A stretch of DNA of 45,256 nt from Desulfobulbaceae bacterium (GTDB lineage Bacteria; Desulfobacterota; Desulfobulbia; Desulfobulbales; VMSU01), in NCBI GenBank assembly GCA_015231515.1, contig JADGBM010000012.1, forward strand, positions 1 to 45,256, written 5' to 3'. The notes below the pieces were generated by a model that saw only the letters and a program-made list of their open reading frames with translations, was not told the DNA's origin and made no database searches. Each line of letters starts with the position of its first letter. Positions within the stretch are counted from its first letter, which is position 1. Position numbers and translations under genes: made by a program. Shown here one piece after another: positions 26,095-45,179 of this stretch.

Positions 26095-26193
26095 GGACTG
26101 AACGGCAAAAAAACCCGTGTTGCCGCAGTATGAGGAGTGTTCGTTCGAGCCTTTCCGGCAACAACCTATTAATTCGTGAACAACGCCTCCCCT

Positions 26194-27096
26194 ATGAGTG
26201 AATCTGCCTTAAGCGCATGTTTGGATCTTTTTCTACATTTTATCACTGCTGAGCGGCGATTGGCTCAAAATACAGTCTCTGCCTATCACAATGATCTTCT
26301 TGCTTTTTTCAGGTCAGTGCCTGTCACTGGAAAAACCAGCCCATCACAAATCAAACAGAAACATATTCGTAACTTTCTTAGCCGGTTGTATGAGCAAAAG
26401 GTGTCGTCAAAAAGCAGTGCCCGTAAGCTTTCGGCCATCCGCCAGTTTTTCCATTTCTTAGTAGCCGAAAATTTGGCACTTGTCGATCCGACCAGTGGCG
26501 TTGAACTCCCAAAAATTAAAAAAAGCCTGCCAAAAAGCTTGAACGTTCAAGAAGTGACGGCCCTGCTTGAGTCAACCGATATTAAGTCACCCCTCAGTCT
26601 ACGCAATACGGCTATGCTTCATCTTCTGTACGGCACAGGATTAAGAGTTTCTGAACTGGTTAAAGTGCCGGTTTCCGGCCTCAATCTGACTGCGGGCTAT
26701 GTCCGTGTTCTTGGCAAGGGCAGTAAAGAACGTCTTGTTCCTTTCGGGGAAGAGGCAAAAGAAAAGATTGATATCTATATCGGGCTTGGCAGGCCCCTTC
26801 TTTTGAAAGGCAGGAGGAGTGATTTTCTGTTCGTTACCAGCCGTGCAACAGCCATGACGCGCTTACGCTTCTGGCAGATTATACAGGAAGTAAGTTTTGC
26901 CAGGGGAATTAATAAGAAGATCAGCCCCCACTCTTTACGGCATTCCTTTGCGACGCATTTAGTTGAAAATGGTGCCGATTTACGAACAGTTCAACTGATG
27001 TTAGGGCACTCCGATATTTCAACAACCCAAATTTATACCCATGTAGATAGTCGGCGTCTGAAGACGGTTCATCAGAAATTCCATCCGCGTGGGTAG
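26194..27096 (+). CDS. xerD: Tyrosine recombinase XerD-like
   Basis: About 300 aa. An N-terminal SAM-like core-binding domain (about 1-95) has TAERRLAQNTVSAYHNDL. The catalytic domain has Arg in GTGLRVSELV, Lys in GKGSKERLVPF, HSLRHSFATHLVENGADLR, and LGHSDISTTQIYTHV with the nucleophilic Tyr. The end, RRLKTVHQKFHPRG, is closer to E. coli XerD than XerC. It resolves chromosome dimers at dif with a partner Xer protein. ATG 26194 is chosen over GTG 26176 by alignment to family N termini; neither has a strong ribosome site. No mobile element borders are seen, so it is read as a housekeeping gene. Confidence 0.92.
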   Translation: MSESALSACLDLFLHFITAERRLAQNTVSAYHNDLLAFFRSVPVTGKTSPSQIKQKHIRNFLSRLYEQKVSSKSSARKLSAIRQFFHFLVAENLALVDPTSGVELPKIKKSLPKSLNVQEVTALLESTDIKSPLSLRNTAMLHLLYGTGLRVSELVKVPVSGLNLTAGYVRVLGKGSKERLVPFGEEAKEKIDIYIGLGRPLLLKGRRSDFLFVTSRATAMTRLRFWQIIQEVSFARGINKKISPHSLRHSFATHLVENGADLRTVQLMLGHSDISTTQIYTHVDSRRLKTVHQKFHPRG

Positions 27097-36908: not shown

Positions 36909-37388
36909 CTATTCGATTACCATAACAGCACAGTTTTTGGCGTGATGCAGGATTTTATTGGATGTTGAGCCGAAAATAAACTCCTCGCTGTGGGTCAGGC
37001 CTCGCCGTCCAACTACCACAATACAGCAGCGTAGCTTTTCCTGTTCTTCCAGTATTACGTCGCCGATTGAATCGCACTGCCGGACAGAAAGACGCGTCTC
37101 CAGCTGGTTTTCTTGAAACCCGGCCCCCAGAAGGATTTGTCGGTATCCAGCCAGTATTTTTTCCATAGTTTCTTTTTTTTCTTTCACCCATTTATGGCGT
37201 TCAGCATCAGTAGGGAAAAAATCTTCTGAAGGTTCCTGGATGATGGAGAGCAGGGTAATGAAAATATCTTTGTTGTCACCGAAAAAATCAGCTAGATACA
37301 TTACGGCGCGTTTTGAGTTTTCCGACTCGTCTACTGCTGCCAGAAGATGGCGTTCAGTGTCTCTTTTTGTAAGATCGTTCACGTTCAT
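36909..37388 (-). CDS. Universal stress protein (UspA family)
   Basis: 159 aa. It starts with HLLAAVDESENSKRAVMYLADFF and ends with the nucleotide-binding pattern VVGRRGLTHSEEFIFGSTSNKILHHAKNCAVMVIE (G-2x-G-9x-G-S/T), so it is probably an ATP-binding Usp. Its ATG overlaps the stop of the upstream kinase-like gene by 4 nt, which means the two are co-translated. A role in stress signalling together with the kinase-like protein is inferred from this coupling. Confidence 0.9.
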   Translation of the reverse strand: MNVNDLTKRDTERHLLAAVDESENSKRAVMYLADFFGDNKDIFITLLSIIQEPSEDFFPTDAERHKWVKEKKETMEKILAGYRQILLGAGFQENQLETRLSVRQCDSIGDVILEEQEKLRCCIVVVGRRGLTHSEEFIFGSTSNKILHHAKNCAVMVIE

Positions 37389-38383
37389 GATCTCCCTCCT
37401 GTCAGGTCAAGAATATCGGTACGGGCAGTGTAAAGATCATCAAGCATTTGGCCCGTTGTATCATAGAATATTTGAGCTCCATTGGAAAAATGAAGAAGAA
37501 CCCTGTTGAGTGATTCTGGGATATACGGAAATATTTTTTTTATATTCGCCACCCTATTCTTATAGGAAATATTGAGGTCTTCGCCCCACAATGTGTCGAA
37601 AAGTGCCTTATTATTGTTGTGGAGATCCGCGACAAGCACATCGCCACGCCCTACCAGAAAAATCAGAATATTGCCAAGCCCTTGTAGATCAAAGCTGAAT
37701 TTAGATTCGCCATGCAGATAATTGTAATCAAAATCGATCCACCTGAGAACTTCTCTCTCCCTGTCCCAGAGGATGTGGTCGCGGCGGATATCGCCATGTT
37801 TTTCTCCATGGTCGTGAAGAAATTTTATAGCCGCCAGCATTTCAATGAACTGATCGAGAACTTTAGGGAAATAATTGTAGAAATAATCCTGGTGGTCTTT
37901 TCCGTAGGGCACAATGATGTCATCGTAGCGCATGCCGTAAATGAAATCGAGAATTCGGATAACGTTGCCGGCCGAATCTTGAACCCAATGGCCATGCATA
38001 AAATTGGGGTGATCAGCGACCAGATCAAGGATGCGAGCTTCCTTTTTAGGACTGCGGAAGCATTTGATGACTATTCCGCCGATCTTTGTTTCGAACTGTT
38101 CATGGAATACAAGTTTGAGGATCCTGGTGGAGCCATCCAGGAGATTAATGGCTCGACGCACCCAGTATTTTGGCTCGTCATCCAGGCCGAAGCGGCCCTC
38201 TTTTTCGTAGCGTTTAACCCAGTAAGGAGAGTCTCCAAGCAGAACTACATCATTGTATTCCACCTTGAAAAAGTCGCTGGTGTCGATGATGATATTAAAT
38301 TTGGGGGGAATCCGCTCTTCACCTCCATGGTCTGCTATAAGCCGACATATTTCATCTCTGCTAAAGCTTCTCGATGTCTGCAC
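37385..38383 (-). CDS. Atypical protein kinase-like protein coupled to a Usp
   Basis: 332 aa, GTG start with a strong gaggagg site about 7 nt upstream. A kinase-fold pattern is visible: Lys90 (RILKLVF), Glu115 (KKEARILDLV), catalytic loop HGDIRRDHIL with Asp198, and a metal-binding WIDFDYN with Asp217 where DFG is expected. The Asn normally five residues after the catalytic Asp is His203, and the glycine-rich loop is not obvious. It resembles RIO/lipopolysaccharide-kinase-type proteins more than Hanks kinases. An extra N-terminal region (about 1-85) has no recognised fold. The downstream Usp overlaps it by 4 nt and could be its substrate or regulator. Confidence 0.75.
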   Translation of the reverse strand: MQTSRSFSRDEICRLIADHGGEERIPPKFNIIIDTSDFFKVEYNDVVLLGDSPYWVKRYEKEGRFGLDDEPKYWVRRAINLLDGSTRILKLVFHEQFETKIGGIVIKCFRSPKKEARILDLVADHPNFMHGHWVQDSAGNVIRILDFIYGMRYDDIIVPYGKDHQDYFYNYFPKVLDQFIEMLAAIKFLHDHGEKHGDIRRDHILWDREREVLRWIDFDYNYLHGESKFSFDLQGLGNILIFLVGRGDVLVADLHNNNKALFDTLWGEDLNISYKNRVANIKKIFPYIPESLNRVLLHFSNGAQIFYDTTGQMLDDLYTARTDILDLTGGRS

Positions 38384-38722: not shown

Positions 38723-39940
38723 ATGGCCACCAACCCTCAAAGTTTCTTCCGTTTTGCTGATCGGCACTACCCTCTGCTGCTTGATCTTTTCTACCGCAGC
38801 ACCGGGCTGACGGAAGCGGATTTGCGGGATTTGATTGATGCTTCCCGTACTGAAGGCGCCCCGGGTTCGGCGGCAATCATTAATCAACTTATATCGTATG
38901 GTATTATTGAGCCGGTTCCTGATGCGACTGCGACCTTTGAACTCACCGCTCCCATAGGCGCTCTTCTTGCTTTTCTGCTTAGGGAACACCGCCTCACCTC
39001 CGCCAAAGTCATTCAAGGCTATCTGAGCGATCTCGAGGATCTGCGCAACGAAATTGATGGCGCTGCACTCCAGAAGTTAAACAACCAGGCAGCCCGAGCG
39101 CTCACTGACATCTCACAGGTGATTGAGCGCATCCGCCAGGATTCCCAGGCAAATCGTGAAGCCATCCTCACCGAAGTGCTCAAGCTCAAAGCCAACCGTG
39201 ATAAGCGCACAGTCCGGGAGCGTTTTGAGGTCATCAATCGTCTGTGGAACCGCCACCTTGAGCCCCTTCGGGATTTGATTGATGTCAAAAAAGCAATGGA
39301 TGCAAGTCTGGATGACTTGGAACGCAGCCTGCTAACAGACGGGAAAACTTTTGTTTTAGACGGAGCGCTCACCCGTGAATTCTCTCGTTGCCGGGCCCGA
39401 TTACTGCGCTTGCGCCGGGAAGTTGCCGAAAACTTTTATGAATCGATGAAAGAGGTGGAACCGCTCTATATTTCGCTCAAGCGGGAGAGCGAATTGGTGC
39501 GCGGGGCCTCCCTTGCCCTGGAAAAGATTGACCGTGCAGGTCTGGCGAGCCTAAATTTTGATGCCTGCCTTGCCATACCGATCTGGCGGCTTGAAGGAAC
39601 TTTTTCAGATACCTACCTGGAGGCCTTCTTCCATGAAGTGCAGGGCTATGAGCCTACGGTTCCTCAACCGCTGCCTGCTGCCGAGGAGATACCACTCCAT
39701 GAGTTCATTCTGCCGTCGGATTTGTTTGCCCGTCTGGATGCATCCGTACCGGTTCCCGACCTTTTAACCTGGTTATTGGCACAATACCCCAAAGCAACTG
39801 CTGGAGAATTGGTGAGAGCTTACGGCCGTATCTATCTTGGCGATCCCCGGGAGATGCATTTTAATGAAGAGGTGCAGCGCTACGCTTTTTCCGACATCTT
39901 TCTAATCGCTCGACCTCTGCAAATTGGAAAACGCCTATGA
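38723..39940 (+). CDS. Wadjet-like JetA (kleisin subunit, MksF-like)
   Basis: 405 aa, first of four overlapping genes. An N-terminal winged-helix-like part (about 1-95: SAAIINQLISYGIIEPVPDATATFELTAPIGALL) is followed by a long helical region (about 95-265) with many Arg/Glu heptads. The C-terminal domain (about 330-405) ends FNEEVQRYAFSDIFLIARP. This arrangement and its first position fit the kleisin of Wadjet/MksBEFG complexes, which bridges the SMC heads. It is identified mainly by context; direct similarity to type I JetA (DUF3375) is not obvious and it is somewhat shorter. The stop overlaps the next start by 4 nt. Confidence 0.78.
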   Translation: MATNPQSFFRFADRHYPLLLDLFYRSTGLTEADLRDLIDASRTEGAPGSAAIINQLISYGIIEPVPDATATFELTAPIGALLAFLLREHRLTSAKVIQGYLSDLEDLRNEIDGAALQKLNNQAARALTDISQVIERIRQDSQANREAILTEVLKLKANRDKRTVRERFEVINRLWNRHLEPLRDLIDVKKAMDASLDDLERSLLTDGKTFVLDGALTREFSRCRARLLRLRREVAENFYESMKEVEPLYISLKRESELVRGASLALEKIDRAGLASLNFDACLAIPIWRLEGTFSDTYLEAFFHEVQGYEPTVPQPLPAAEEIPLHEFILPSDLFARLDASVPVPDLLTWLLAQYPKATAGELVRAYGRIYLGDPREMHFNEEVQRYAFSDIFLIARPLQIGKRL

Positions 39941-40488
39941 GCCAAAACAGCCCATTTGCCCTGCCTTTCCTTAGTGAAATATTCGAGGCCCTACGCCGGG
40001 GACGACATCTCTGCGCCGAAGACGGTGGGCCTTACGCAGCGCTGCGAGACAATCTGGATTCCTACCATGACCTTTTTGGGCATCTTGGTTTCCGGCTGGA
40101 GCGCCATCCTCGTGACTTTTTTTATTTCCGTGGCAAAGACAGTTTGAGTTCGCAATCCTCCCGTATGGCGTTGTTTGTTCTCATCCTCATCGAGTCTCTT
40201 GCCGATCATGGCCAACCGATTGTCGACACGCTCATGACCAAGACCTTTGCTATTGCCGATCTACCTCATCTGAAGGCGGCCCGCTTCCGAACCTATCTCA
40301 AGGAATCGGGAGTTCTCGATGAAGACGGTTTACGCGGCATTGTGCGGCAACTGGATCGTTTCGGCTTTTGCCAACGCCTTACCGATAATACCTTTCGATT
40401 CCGGCCACCGGCCTATCGATTCTTTGATCTCTGTTTGGAGGTGTTGAAACAGCAGGAGATGGTGCAGACCGAGGAGCAGGCGCCATGA
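39937..40488 (+). CDS. Wadjet-like JetB (KITE/MukE-like winged-helix subunit)
   Basis: 183 aa. The N-terminal half has LSEIFEALRRGRHLCAEDGGPYAALRDN and a strand/turn pattern (LGFRLERHPRDFFYFRG). The C-terminal half has a winged-helix pattern (RFRTYLKESGVLDEDGLRGIVRQLDRFGFCQRLTDNTFRFRPPAYRFFDLC). Size, order and fold fit JetB/MksE (DUF4194-type) proteins, which form the dimeric KITE subunit on the kleisin. Both ends overlap the neighbouring genes by 4 nt (ATGA). Confidence 0.82.
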   Translation: MSQNSPFALPFLSEIFEALRRGRHLCAEDGGPYAALRDNLDSYHDLFGHLGFRLERHPRDFFYFRGKDSLSSQSSRMALFVLILIESLADHGQPIVDTLMTKTFAIADLPHLKAARFRTYLKESGVLDEDGLRGIVRQLDRFGFCQRLTDNTFRFRPPAYRFFDLCLEVLKQQEMVQTEEQAP

Positions 40489-43190
40489 ATATAGTCGGCC
40501 CAGCCAGACTGGTACTCGTACGCTCCGGTAAATACGACTACGGTGAGATCGAGTTAATTAATCCGCTGCATCTGATCGGCCCCAACAATGTGGGTAAGAC
40601 CTCATTGATTGCCGTGCTTCAGTTCCTCTACATCGATGACCAGCGCAGCATGCACTTTTCACGGGAGATGTCTGATACGCGGAAATACTACTTCCCCGAT
40701 CAGAACAGTTACATTCTGTTTGAGTGTCTGACCCAGACCGGGTATCAGGTGGTCGGCGTCCAGGGGCTGGGGCCCATCCGTGGTTATGAATTTCAACGGT
40801 TTTCCTATCAGGGCGTCTATGATGCGGCGGATTATTTAGACGAGGCTCGATGCGTCCGGCCATCAGAGGAGATACGCTCCCGTCTTGCCGCCCGAGATTT
40901 TCGTCTTCTCGAACCGCGACATTTGCGGGCCGCTCTCACGGGATTAGGGGAGAACCGTGGAGTCAATCTTGGACTCGTGCCGATCCGTCAACGAGACCAC
41001 TATGAACGATTTCGCGCCGTGTTCGGCAATCTGTTGCGCCTTGCCCATCTGCGTCAGAATGAGTTGAAGGAGTTTCTTCTTGAAATCCACCAGGGTGAAT
41101 TTCAACAACGAGCCGTCGATCTGGAAGTTGGGTATTCAAGCCAATACAGCAAGGTCTGTAGGGAAGCCAGGGAGTTGCTGGAACTGCGCACAATTGCCGA
41201 CGATGTGCGGCGTGTCCTTGAACTTGCCTCTGGGCGCGACAGCTTGCGGCGCCTTCTTCCAGGTCTCTGGCAAGAGATTACTCGTGCCCATTCTCGGCAA
41301 GAAGATGAGTTTGCCGGGCAGGAAAAGAAAGTCCACGATCGTCTTGATCGTCTCAGAGAGGAAGGACAATCGCTGATTGAAAAAATCGCCGGAGGAGAAA
41401 AAACCCAGCAAGAATTGAATCAAGCTCTTGGCAAGCTCGAAGGTGCCATAGAAAGACATCAACAGGCAACCGAAGAGTTTCAACAGTATCTTGTCGATTT
41501 TGAAGAATCCAGATGCCAGCTGTTGGAAACAAAGATTGATGACCTCGGCGCCTCTCTCGGACAGGCCGCAGACCTTTCTCTTTCCCAAATGCAAGCCCGG
41601 ATATCGGCAATGCAGACGGAATTGACCGGGCTTGAAAAGCAGCGCGACCAGTTTTCCCGACTTGCCGCCACCAAAATCCTCCAGATGCTGCCCGATGAAG
41701 ATCTACAGAATGCCTTCAGGTTAATTAACCCGGATATATTAGGGTTGATCCAAGGTGAAGAGGCCATAGAACTTCGCAATGAGCAAAAGATACAGGAAGC
41801 CCTGGAGCACATCAGTGGCCACATTCAAGAAGGCGTCTATCAAGATGACCGGATCCGCCTGGTTCTCTCCTCCATAAATCCGCCGGATCTTTCTCGGTAT
41901 CGTGATGCCGATGTCCTCCATACCCGCATTGAGGAACAGAAAAAGGCTCTGGGTCGGGAACAACAGCTTTTTGAGGCTGCCCAAAATGCTGAACCGCTAA
42001 AAAGAGATAGGCAAAAATTAAAAGAAGAGTGGAAACAACTCTCTCACCGCCTGCTCCGCTATAGAAACTACCGAAAAGAGCTTCCTGAATTTGAAAAGAA
42101 CAAGCACGCTCTGGTGCTGCTTAATTCGCAGTTAACCGAACTTACTGGGGCCATGGCACAACTTAAAAGCCGACAATCGACCCTGAGAGAAGAAGAACGT
42201 TCTGCCAGCCAGGGTCTGAAAACAATCGAAACAAAGCGCCAGACCCTGATTCAACGACTCAGGAAATTGACCAAGCCGGATTCGGCATGGCCCCTTGAAA
42301 CCTTCACCCCTGAAGGTCATGACCTTGAAGCGCTCCTTGAAATGTATGAACAAAAAAGCAGGGAGCAAAGCGAAATAGCGCAACGCTTCAGTGAATATTT
42401 CCATACGGTTAATCAGCGCACCTATGATAAATATCTTGGCGAAGATGAAGCTGTTACCTTAGCCAATCTGCAAGACGAAGTCGATGCCGTGGCCGAACGG
42501 GAAAATGCGGTTCAGGAACTCTGGAAGAGTCTGGTTGCCGGTCTGCAAAGTTCATTCAAAGGCCTGAATCGTGACCTGCAAACCCTTATCATGCGGATTG
42601 ATGAACTGAATCGCCGCCTGGGGCGTATTTCCATTTCCAACCTGGCTCGGCTGCGGCTCATCTTGCGTGAGCATCCGGAATGGACCAAGAGGATAAAAAC
42701 CATGGTCGAAGCGGAAGTTTCACCCTTATTCGCAGACCCAACGGCAGTCAGCGAAGCGCACAGCCAGTTAGGGGATCTGCTTAAAAAACATCAGCGCGTT
42801 GAACTGGCCGATCTTTTTGACCTGCACTTTGAAGTTACCAGCGTTGATGGGCAAATCAGGCGTTACCCCCATCTTGATTCCATTGAATCAAACGGCACGA
42901 CGATCACCATCAAGGTTCTCATTAATCTGTTGCTCCTCAAAGGCCTGCTGGGAAATAAAGAAGTTACTATGCCTTTCTATCTTGATGAGGCCTCCAGCCT
43001 CGACCGGGAAAATCTGACCGCAATTGTTTGCGAAGCTCGGAAAATGGGATTTGTGGCCGTGCTGGCCAGTCCTGAGGCCATGGAAGCGGCTGATTCTCTC
43101 TATTTTCTGCGTGAACAAAAAGGTCGGATCATGCTCGATCCGAAAACCGCCCTGGTGCGCATCGAAAGGAAAACCGCCGATGGCCGTTGA
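40485..43190 (+). CDS. Wadjet-like JetC (SMC-like ATPase, MksB-like)
   Basis: 901 aa. The N-terminal Walker A is IGPNNVGKTSLI (about 31-42). A long coiled coil with a central hinge-like interruption occupies about 270-750. The C-terminal head has an SNGTT signature (about 802-806, SNGTTITIKVLINLL), the variant used by MukB/MksB/JetC proteins, then Walker B and D loop FYLDEASSLD with Asp834 and Glu835. It would hydrolyse ATP and extrude DNA loops. It is shorter than the ~1100 aa I recall for type I JetC and nearer to MksB. The stop overlaps the next gene by 11 nt. Confidence 0.88.
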   Translation: MNIVGPARLVLVRSGKYDYGEIELINPLHLIGPNNVGKTSLIAVLQFLYIDDQRSMHFSREMSDTRKYYFPDQNSYILFECLTQTGYQVVGVQGLGPIRGYEFQRFSYQGVYDAADYLDEARCVRPSEEIRSRLAARDFRLLEPRHLRAALTGLGENRGVNLGLVPIRQRDHYERFRAVFGNLLRLAHLRQNELKEFLLEIHQGEFQQRAVDLEVGYSSQYSKVCREARELLELRTIADDVRRVLELASGRDSLRRLLPGLWQEITRAHSRQEDEFAGQEKKVHDRLDRLREEGQSLIEKIAGGEKTQQELNQALGKLEGAIERHQQATEEFQQYLVDFEESRCQLLETKIDDLGASLGQAADLSLSQMQARISAMQTELTGLEKQRDQFSRLAATKILQMLPDEDLQNAFRLINPDILGLIQGEEAIELRNEQKIQEALEHISGHIQEGVYQDDRIRLVLSSINPPDLSRYRDADVLHTRIEEQKKALGREQQLFEAAQNAEPLKRDRQKLKEEWKQLSHRLLRYRNYRKELPEFEKNKHALVLLNSQLTELTGAMAQLKSRQSTLREEERSASQGLKTIETKRQTLIQRLRKLTKPDSAWPLETFTPEGHDLEALLEMYEQKSREQSEIAQRFSEYFHTVNQRTYDKYLGEDEAVTLANLQDEVDAVAERENAVQELWKSLVAGLQSSFKGLNRDLQTLIMRIDELNRRLGRISISNLARLRLILREHPEWTKRIKTMVEAEVSPLFADPTAVSEAHSQLGDLLKKHQRVELADLFDLHFEVTSVDGQIRRYPHLDSIESNGTTITIKVLINLLLLKGLLGNKEVTMPFYLDEASSLDRENLTAIVCEARKMGFVAVLASPEAMEAADSLYFLREQKGRIMLDPKTALVRIERKTADGR

Positions 43191-44025
43191 TTTTCTTGCC
43201 GAAAAACTCGTGCTCCTGCAGACGCAGGGCTTTATTGCCGAGAGCCGATTGGGCGCTCGGGACCGAACTTGTTTGAAAAGCCTGTTTGAGGCCGGAGTTC
43301 TGCAGACAGCTCGCAGTGGCGCAGGCAGACGTGTTGTTTTGCATGATGCAAACGCACTTAAATCGTTCATGAGCAAAACCTATCCCTCCGGCCCGGAGGG
43401 AGTTACGGCAAAGGTATCATCTCGCAGTCAAGCTATAGCCGAGTTGCGGGATTCAAAAAAAGCACGGACAACACAGCCGGTTGCTGTGTTGTTGCGCGGA
43501 TTTAACGGCAGTACATTCCACTCCGGCAATCAGGCTTTGGCCGTTGCTGACTGGTCTGCAATGGCTGGTGTTGCCGCTCTTCGTCTCGACGAGAAAACGC
43601 TCTGGGGATTTTCAGGAACTGTTGCCTTTGTCGAAAATCTTGAAGTTTTTTGGAATTTCGAAAAACTTGACATAAAGGCTGATATCGCGATTTACGCCCA
43701 AGGGCGGCTGAACAGCAAAGTCTTGGCCTGGTTGGCCTCTCCGGCCATGCAACATGCCCGGATAATCCACTGCGGAGACTACGATCCTGTCGGCCTAGAT
43801 GAGTTTTTGCGTTTACAATCGGCTTGTCCCGGCAGGACGGAACTTTTCATTCCTCCAGACCTCGAGAGTTTATTGTCCCGATACGGCAAAAAAGAACTTA
43901 TCAGCGACAATATTGCCATTCTGGCCAGGCTTAGAAAAAACGCCGATCCACAAGTTCGTTTTGTTGTCGAACTGATCAACCGTTGGGGTGTTGGTCTGGA
44001 GCAGGAAGTGCTATTATTGAAGTAA
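43180..44025 (+). CDS. Wadjet-like JetD (Toprim nuclease subunit, MksG-like)
   Basis: 281 aa from ATG 43180, which has aagga upstream and overlaps jetC by 11 nt; the longer frame from 43024 runs inside jetC and is rejected. An N-terminal winged-helix-like region (about 1-100) precedes a topoisomerase VI-type Toprim domain with the acidic motif ENLE (Glu152) and the DxDxxG motif HCGDYDPVGLDEF (Asp200, Asp202, Gly205). In known Wadjet systems this subunit cuts small circular DNA that the SMC complex has extruded. All visible catalytic residues are intact. It is shorter than the JetD proteins I recall from type I systems. Confidence 0.86.
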   Translation: MAVDFLAEKLVLLQTQGFIAESRLGARDRTCLKSLFEAGVLQTARSGAGRRVVLHDANALKSFMSKTYPSGPEGVTAKVSSRSQAIAELRDSKKARTTQPVAVLLRGFNGSTFHSGNQALAVADWSAMAGVAALRLDEKTLWGFSGTVAFVENLEVFWNFEKLDIKADIAIYAQGRLNSKVLAWLASPAMQHARIIHCGDYDPVGLDEFLRLQSACPGRTELFIPPDLESLLSRYGKKELISDNIAILARLRKNADPQVRFVVELINRWGVGLEQEVLLLK

Positions 44026-44180: not shown

Positions 44181-45179
44181 ATGGCTTTTATGGACGAGAT
44201 ATTAAAACAGTTTGAGCAGTTTATGGCAGTCGTGACCCAAGAGCGAATTGCGATCACTCCCTTGACCGTGGGGAAACGCCTTCCGCATTTTTTGCGGCAG
44301 CTTTATGCATTATACAGCTTACAGATAAGTAATCGAACACATCTGGGAGTATTGCTTCGTGATCAACGGGAGTTTAAACCAACTTCCTTCATGAAGCATT
44401 TATCTCAATTACCACTGGGTGAAATGGAAGGCTACTGCCTGATTGCTCAGGCATTGCCAGGGTATGTGCGAAAAAAACTGATAGAAAATGGAATTCCTTT
44501 CGTGGTACCGGGCAGTCAACTTTTCTGGCCGGCTCTTGGCATGGTCATGCAGCAAAGGGGGAGCTGGCGCCAACCATTGATCAAAACCGACCAGCTAAGC
44601 CCCGCCACTCAGGTAGTGATACTCCACTCTCTTACCGGCAACATTGATGAGGAAGTCACCCCCAAGGCACTTGCCGCGCGACTTGGTTACACCGCCATGA
44701 CCATGACTCGGGCTTTGGACGAAATCGAAGCCCATGGATTAGGAGTAGTCACCAGGGAGGGACGCGAACGTCATCTATGCTTTTCCAGTGGGAAGAAAAC
44801 TCTATGGGAAAATGCCTGTCCTCTTTTGCGGAATCCGGTACGTGAGGAAGTCCGGCTCATGGAGAACGATGTTCCCATAAAATTTCCTCTGCTTGCGGGA
44901 GAAAGCGCCCTGGCTTCTCGGACAATTCTGGGCTATCCATCTACCCCGGTCTACGCAGTTGGCAGAGATGGCTGGAAGGTCATCCGGGAAAAAGGGGTTG
45001 AAGTGATTCCTGTGGAAGAGCCAGGAACCTGCACAATCCAGATATGGCGTTATAACCCGACCCTTCTGGCCGATAATGACAGCGTCGATGTTTTTTCTCT
45101 TTATCTGAGCCTGCAGGATGAGCGGGATGAACGGGTACAATCCGCGCTGGATGAAATGATGGAGCGTTATTCATGGTAG
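44181..45179 (+). CDS. AbiEi-like winged-helix antitoxin / transcriptional regulator
   Basis: 332 aa. A helical N-terminal region (about 1-130) precedes a MarR-like winged helix (about 140-205: SPATQVVILHSLTGN...TPKALAARLGYTAMTMTRALDEIEAHGL). The C-terminal region has TPVYAVGRDGWK, VIPVEEPGTCTIQIWRYNP and the ending DVFSLYLSLQDERDERVQSALDEMM. I recognise this combination from proteins encoded before AbiEii-type nucleotidyltransferases, the antitoxin of type IV toxin-antitoxin systems. It begins 155 bp after jetD with its own leader, so it is a separate unit. The next frame overlaps its end by 7 nt. Confidence 0.7.
   Translation: MAFMDEILKQFEQFMAVVTQERIAITPLTVGKRLPHFLRQLYALYSLQISNRTHLGVLLRDQREFKPTSFMKHLSQLPLGEMEGYCLIAQALPGYVRKKLIENGIPFVVPGSQLFWPALGMVMQQRGSWRQPLIKTDQLSPATQVVILHSLTGNIDEEVTPKALAARLGYTAMTMTRALDEIEAHGLGVVTREGRERHLCFSSGKKTLWENACPLLRNPVREEVRLMENDVPIKFPLLAGESALASRTILGYPSTPVYAVGRDGWKVIREKGVEVIPVEEPGTCTIQIWRYNPTLLADNDSVDVFSLYLSLQDERDERVQSALDEMMERYSW

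What the first reader, a model, noticed from the sequence alone, without database searches (positions are those of the whole stretch)
38723..44025. Compact Wadjet/MksBEFG-like anti-plasmid operon of uncertain subtype
Seen: four genes with 4-, 4- and 11-nt overlaps. The third has Walker A GPNNVGKTS, an SNGTT signature and Walker B YLDEASSLD. The fourth has Toprim motifs ENLE and GDYDPVGL. The first is a helical/winged-helix protein and the second a small winged-helix protein. Known: kleisin-KITE-SMC-nuclease order defines Wadjet (JetABCD), which cleaves circular plasmids. Inferred: subunits of 405, 183, 901 and 281 aa are smaller than the type I proteins I remember, so this may be type II/III or a divergent branch, and the kleisin is not recognisable as DUF3375.
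Basis: partly seen in the sequence, partly recalled or inferred. Interest (0 to 1): 0.75.

Follow-up and report, generated by a model that had tools for sequence, protein, structure and literature searches.

The report
MksBEF-branch Wadjet-like plasmid-restriction operon
Four overlapping genes encode a small DNA-pulling ring complex plus a DNA-cutting enzyme, almost certainly a system that finds and destroys small circular invading DNA such as plasmids; the general kind is known, but this branch is not recognised by the profiles of the three named Wadjet types that I could test.

Summary
In detail: four genes (405, 183, 901 and 281 aa) with 4-, 4- and 11-nt overlaps and the stated ATPase and Toprim motifs. 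They encode an MksBEFG complex: MukF/JetA-like kleisin, MksE-family KITE, MksB-family SMC ATPase and a compact JetD/MksG-like Toprim nuclease. It is not Wadjet I, II or III by PADLOC profiles. The KITE matches MksE (not DUF4194), the SMC matches the NCBIfam MksBEF condensin SMC over its full length (type I JetC and MukB do not), and the nuclease lacks DUF3322. Its fold is closest to C. glutamicum MksG, topo VI and P. aeruginosa JetD. In a tree of SMC heads it lies in a 100/99-supported MksBEF branch with other Desulfobulbales and with plasmid-borne Pseudomonas, Polaromonas, Neptuniibacter, Halioglobus and Salinibacter operons, nearly all with the nuclease gene next to the SMC gene. Catalytic acids are conserved in all 20 nucleases aligned. 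The operon is patchy (14 of 258 class genomes), sits in varying neighbourhoods (once next to Septu), and its four proteins diverge in step. Best reading: a Wadjet-type system that loop-extrudes and then cuts small circular DNA. The function is inferred by homology. Interest is moderate.

The parts
38723..39940 (+). mksF/jetA-like kleisin, 405 aa
   Evidence: NF040857 94.8 bits over 5-371 (the NCBIfam label 'MksB' on this 412-aa model looks swapped); AlphaFold model best matches MukF 9gm7_C and JetA 8q72_E; no DUF3375
39937..40488 (+). mksE/jetB-like KITE subunit, 183 aa
   Evidence: PF21980 MksE 113.8 bits, cut-off 27; MukE 22.9 bits, just under its cut-off; profile matches solved MukE chains
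40485..43190 (+). mksB/jetC-like SMC ATPase, 901 aa
   Evidence: NF040859 212.9 bits, residues 5-865 on profile 7-895 of 926; tree
40578..40604 (+). Walker A GPNNVGKTS (MksB aa 32-40)
   Evidence: N34, N35, G37, K38 invariant in 13 homologues
42888..42902 (+). ABC-type signature SNGTT (MksB aa 802-806)
   Evidence: S802, G804, T805 invariant
42978..43004 (+). Walker B YLDEASSLD (MksB aa 832-840)
   Evidence: Y832, D834, E835, D840 invariant
43180..44025 (+). mksG/jetD-like Toprim nuclease, 281 aa, overlapping mksB by 11 nt
   Evidence: PF09983 JetD_C 25.9 bits (cut-off 22); PF23947 DUF7281 24.1 bits (cut-off 27); fold matches 8b7f_A MksG, 9o8p_A topo VI, 7til_A JetD
43633..43644 (+). Toprim ENLE motif (MksG E152)
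   Evidence: E and N invariant in 20 nucleases
43774..43797 (+). Toprim GDYDPVGL motif (MksG D200 and D202)
   Evidence: DxD invariant in 20 nucleases
43999..44007 (+). C-terminal EQE (MksG E274 and E276), likely counterpart of E349/E351 of C. glutamicum MksG
   Evidence: last E invariant in 20 nucleases; first E kept in 18 of 20; residue roles from PMC10123090

Best explanation
This is an MksBEFG operon: a Wadjet-type plasmid-restriction system whose motor belongs to the MksBEF branch. MksB (SMC), MksF (kleisin) and MksE (KITE) should form a dimeric ATP-driven loop extruder (shown for other family members; inferred here). On a small closed circle, extrusion runs to completion and stalls. This activates the dimeric Toprim nuclease MksG, which makes a metal-dependent double-strand cut (shown for type I Wadjet; inferred here). 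A large chromosome escapes because extrusion never completes.
For: Domain and fold assignments of all four proteins. ATPase motifs and nuclease acids conserved across 22-80% identity. The nuclease gene is next to the SMC gene in 13 of the 14 class genomes with a real MksB, and in 6 of 6 plasmid relatives inspected. The four proteins co-diverge (Mantel r 0.975-0.992, 0 of 2000 permutations as high). Patchy, defence-like distribution: 14 of 258 class genomes. Neighbourhoods differ even between close relatives; one copy starts about 100 bp after a Septu PtuA/PtuB pair and another lies beside a Fic protein. Plasmid restriction by family members is published (PMC10123090, PMC10586767, PMC12287153), as is extrusion followed by JetD activation (PMC12647877).
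Against: No experiment exists on this branch. The only experimentally studied MksBEF that carries this profile name (P. aeruginosa) acts on the chromosome and is reported without JetD (PMC7485682, PMC10586767). The short nuclease lacks the DUF3322 region of type I JetD, so activation may differ. Several relatives lie on plasmids of 76-972 kb, so they must tolerate those replicons. No model of the whole complex was made.
Confidence: 0.8

Rival explanations
1. It is a chromosome-organising condensin, as MksBEF is in P. aeruginosa, and the nuclease is accessory, for example for resolving chromosome entanglements.
For: The SMC and kleisin fall in the NCBIfam MksBEF condensin families. This genome and all sampled order relatives show no canonical Smc or ScpA, and no MukE above its cut-off, so no other standard condensin was found. 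P. aeruginosa MksBEF acts on its chromosome (PMC7485682).
Against: Only 14 of 258 class genomes carry it, so the order does not depend on it. The nuclease is retained with intact catalytic acids. Neighbourhoods vary and relatives are plasmid-borne. A divergent relative occurs in a genome that also has Smc (G316).
Confidence: 0.1
2. It defends mainly against phages or conjugative elements through another trigger, not by measuring small circles.
For: Defence-gene neighbours at some loci, a divergent compact nuclease, and weak similarity to LmuB of Lamassu.
Against: The four-subunit layout and folds match plasmid-restricting MksBEFG/JetABCD. The LmuB match lies mostly in the coiled coil, and no Lamassu partner is present.
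Confidence: 0.07
3. The operon is a decayed or inactive remnant.
For: Related copies show decay: a frameshifted mksB in L043 and a missing mksG in L040.
Against: All four frames are open here, with intact overlaps and invariant catalytic residues.
Confidence: 0.03

Closest known systems
Wadjet type I (JetABCD / MksBEFG of E. coli GF4-3, P. aeruginosa PA14, C. glutamicum)
   Same: Gene order kleisin-KITE-SMC-nuclease, fold of kleisin and nuclease, Toprim acids, coupled reading frames
   Different: No DUF3375, DUF4194 or DUF3322; SMC 901 aa against about 1,120-1,136 aa in the three type I JetC found here; nuclease 281 aa against about 390 aa; separate branch in the SMC tree
MksBEF of P. aeruginosa (chromosomal condensin)
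   Same: Kleisin and SMC match the NCBIfam Mks condensin models over nearly full length; MksE family KITE; short SMC
   Different: Has a nuclease gene, which the P. aeruginosa complex is reported to lack; far below the equivalog cut-off (213 of 1900 bits)
MukBEF of E. coli
   Same: KITE and kleisin folds; profile match of the KITE to MukE
   Different: SMC 901 against 1486 aa; no MukB profile match; has a nuclease
Wadjet types II and III
   Same: Four-subunit anti-plasmid logic
   Different: PADLOC JetA-D models for these types give no convincing match; JetC models are 1365 and 1472 positions long

Membership tests
MksBEFG / Wadjet group (broad sense) | Co-directional kleisin, KITE, SMC with Walker motifs, and a flanking Toprim MksG/JetD | tested here: met
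MksBEFG / Wadjet group (broad sense) | Nuclease metal-binding acids (E and DxD) conserved | tested here: met
   residue roles from PMC10123090
MksBEFG / Wadjet group (broad sense) | Restriction of circular plasmids | not testable with these tools
   Needs a transformation or cleavage assay
Wadjet type I | DUF3375 kleisin, DUF4194 KITE, DUF3322 plus JetD_C nuclease | tested here: not met
   Only JetD_C is found here; a true type I set from the same order gives all four domains
Wadjet type I | SMC groups with JetC type I | tested here: not met
   Separate branch, 100/99 support; no type I JetC match beyond coiled-coil level
Wadjet types II and III | Match to PADLOC JetA2-D2 or JetA3-D3 models | tested here: not met
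   No JetA or JetB match; JetC 17 bits or less, in coiled coil; JetD 14 bits or less. No true type II sequence was available for the tree
MksBEF (NCBIfam condensin) | SMC, kleisin and KITE match the MksBEF profiles over most of their length | tested here: met
   NF040859 213, NF040857 95, NF040858 81 bits; MukB and type I JetC do not match NF040859
MksBEF (NCBIfam condensin) | Score above the equivalog cut-off (same function as the reference condensin) | tested here: not met
   213 against 1900 bits
MukBEF | MukB profile match and MukE above its cut-off | tested here: not met
   No NF003422 match; MukE 22.9 bits, cut-off 25
Lamassu | LmuB SMC-like sensor with Lamassu partners | tested here: not met
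   LmuB 42.7 bits, mostly in coiled coil; partners are kleisin, KITE and JetD-like

The most novel reading that the evidence does not exclude
The MksBEF branch is by default a nuclease-bearing restriction system, a fourth Wadjet-like type with a compact DUF7281/JetD_C nuclease and short arms that current defence profiles miss. Chromosomal MksBEF condensins such as that of P. aeruginosa would be derived from it by loss of the nuclease. In hosts without Smc-ScpAB the same motor might also act on the chromosome.
Probability: 0.3. Interest if true: 0.6.

Novelty: new variant of a known kind. Interest (0 to 1): 0.4.

Why it matters
It links two things treated apart: Wadjet plasmid restriction and MksBEF chromosome condensins. 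A review suggests P. [quoted passage not shown] Here the MksBEF branch is seen with its nuclease in most members, plus one recent natural loss (L040), which makes that idea testable. In practice, PADLOC profiles do not name this system, so anti-plasmid capacity in such genomes may be under-counted.

Tried and rejected
Single-sequence search of solved structures for the nuclease and the SMC gave only chance or coiled-coil matches. Profile searches of PDB for the nuclease, SMC and kleisin also gave nothing useful; fold comparison did. Viral contigs and phage records: no relatives. Type II and III JetC reference search in the phylum gave mostly coiled-coil noise; one type III-like sequence was kept. 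The idea that downstream gene 44181-45179 or the upstream kinase-like and Usp genes belong to the system was dropped: no homologue lies near the related operons. P. aeruginosa MksB itself could not be fetched, so its place in the tree is inferred from profile scores only. Petrushenko 2011, which defined MksBEF, was not held, nor was the operon list of Burmann 2025 (PMC7617805) readable, so I cannot exclude that this branch is listed there.

Full report
OBSERVATION. The four genes are present as described: 38723-39940 (405 aa), 39937-40488 (183 aa), 40485-43190 (901 aa) and 43180-44025 (281 aa), with overlaps of 4, 4 and 11 nt. All quoted motifs are there. The mechanical ORF of the fourth gene begins at an upstream TTG, but homologues support the ATG at 43180.

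WHAT THE PROTEINS ARE. KITE: Pfam MksE, 113.8 bits against a cut-off of 27; MukE just under its cut-off; solved MukE structures are its profile relatives. SMC: NCBIfam NF040859, 212.9 bits over residues 5-865. Kleisin: NF040857, 94.8 bits. The lengths of these two NCBIfam models (926 and 412) and what they match indicate that their MksF and MksB labels are swapped. The predicted kleisin (mean pLDDT 76.5) best matches MukF and JetA. The nuclease is over the Pfam cut-off for JetD_C (25.9 against 22) and just under it for DUF7281. Its model (mean pLDDT 85.7) best matches C. glutamicum MksG, topoisomerase VI and P. aeruginosa JetD. TM-scores over the whole chain are low (0.3-0.4), so the fold match rests on probability and E-value, and domain orientation may differ. 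It has no DUF3322 region.

SUBTYPE. PADLOC models for Wadjet I-III give no convincing hit: no JetA or JetB match, JetC at 20 bits or less in coiled coil, JetD at 18 bits or less. As a positive control, a type I system in another genome of the same order (L077, genome G038) gives DUF3375, DUF4194 and DUF3322 plus JetD_C at full strength, and its JetC scores 1560 bits on the type I model. Type I JetC and E. coli MukB do not match NF040859 at E 0.01, whereas the window's relatives score 209-345 bits. In a tree of SMC heads (24 rows), the 19 Mks sequences form one side of a branch with 100/99 support, apart from type I JetC, a type III-like JetC and MukB. The tree is unrooted, has some long branches, and holds no type II sequence and no P. 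aeruginosa MksB. Subunit lengths are strikingly constant in close relatives (405, 183, 901, 281).

CONSERVATION AND CONTEXT. In 258 genomes of the class, 14 have a real MksB (four further hits are short coiled-coil matches). Thirteen of the 14 have the nuclease directly downstream. The exception is G038 (L040): the 570 bp after mksB hold no nuclease, a search of that genome with the window nuclease found none, and the same genome carries a type I Wadjet. L040 nests among nuclease-bearing operons, so this is best read as a loss. Relatives also lie on plasmids of Salinibacter, Neptuniibacter, Pseudomonas (two megaplasmids), Polaromonas and Halioglobus, each with a nuclease-like fourth gene. Across 20 nucleases the E, the DxD and the C-terminal E are invariant. 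Distance matrices of the four proteins are strongly correlated (r 0.975-0.992), as expected of one inherited unit. Neighbourhoods differ between relatives: Septu PtuA/PtuB directly upstream in L037, a Fic protein in L034, SNF2 helicases in L033 and L036, a Schlafen-AlbA/Fic-like protein in L043. The window's own neighbours (kinase-like and universal stress genes upstream, a MarR-like HTH gene downstream) are not found at related loci and are not part of the system. No tRNA lies in the window.

HOST. The genome belongs to the Desulfobulbales, judged from record titles of the closest relatives. None of the 58 genomes searched in the order, this one included, has canonical Smc or ScpA, and none has MukE above its cut-off, while 158 of 198 genomes sampled across the phylum have Smc. 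The Mks complex is therefore the only SMC-kleisin complex recognised in this genome (95% complete). But most of the order lacks it too, so it is not the order's general condensin. A divergent relative with a DUF7281 nuclease exists in G316, which does have Smc.

MECHANISM. Shown for others: type I Wadjet extrudes a plasmid with a dimeric JetABC motor and activates JetD when extrusion is complete (PMC12647877); MksG of C. glutamicum is a metal-dependent Toprim nuclease whose E236 and D279 are needed (PMC10123090). Inferred here: the same cycle, with shorter SMC arms and a smaller nuclease. I put this at 0.8. The main rival, a chromosome condensin as in P. aeruginosa (PMC7485682), is weakened by patchiness, the retained nuclease and mobile context.

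NOVELTY. The Wadjet/Mks group is known and diverse, and many members carry MksG/JetD (PMC7617805). What differs is the combination of an MksBEF-branch motor with a compact DUF7281/JetD_C nuclease, outside the three profiled Wadjet types. I call it a new variant of a known kind, with the caution that two key sources (Petrushenko 2011 and the operon list of Burmann 2025) could not be read.

Noticed in passing
own genome G000 and 57 order relatives: No canonical Smc (TIGR02168) or ScpA in any of 58 Desulfobulbales genomes, and no MukE above its cut-off, while 158 of 198 genomes across the phylum have Smc. The order may lack all standard condensins.
   Followed up: partly
L040 (genome G038), 1-570: mksFEB operon without its nuclease, in a genome that also carries a complete type I Wadjet (L077). 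A probable natural loss of the nuclease.
   Followed up: partly
L043:6008-8763: mksB is split into two overlapping frames in an otherwise complete operon of a single-contig genome: frameshift mutation or assembly error.
   Followed up: no
L045-L050 and window 43180-44025: Pfam DUF7281 (PF23947, unnamed) is the Toprim end of MksG-type nucleases next to MksBEF operons, including one on a Pseudomonas megaplasmid above the family cut-off.
   Followed up: yes
NCBIfam NF040857 and NF040859: The model names look swapped: the 412-position 'MksB' model matches the kleisin and the 926-position 'MksF' model matches the SMC.
   Followed up: yes
window 26176-27096: Tyrosine recombinase (phage integrase family) about 11.6 kb upstream of the operon; no tRNA in the window and no clear link to the operon.
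   Followed up: no
window 37385-38383: Divergent upstream gene is kinase-like (weak Pkinase match, MkoA-like 23.8 bits in PADLOC), beside a universal stress protein gene.
   Followed up: no
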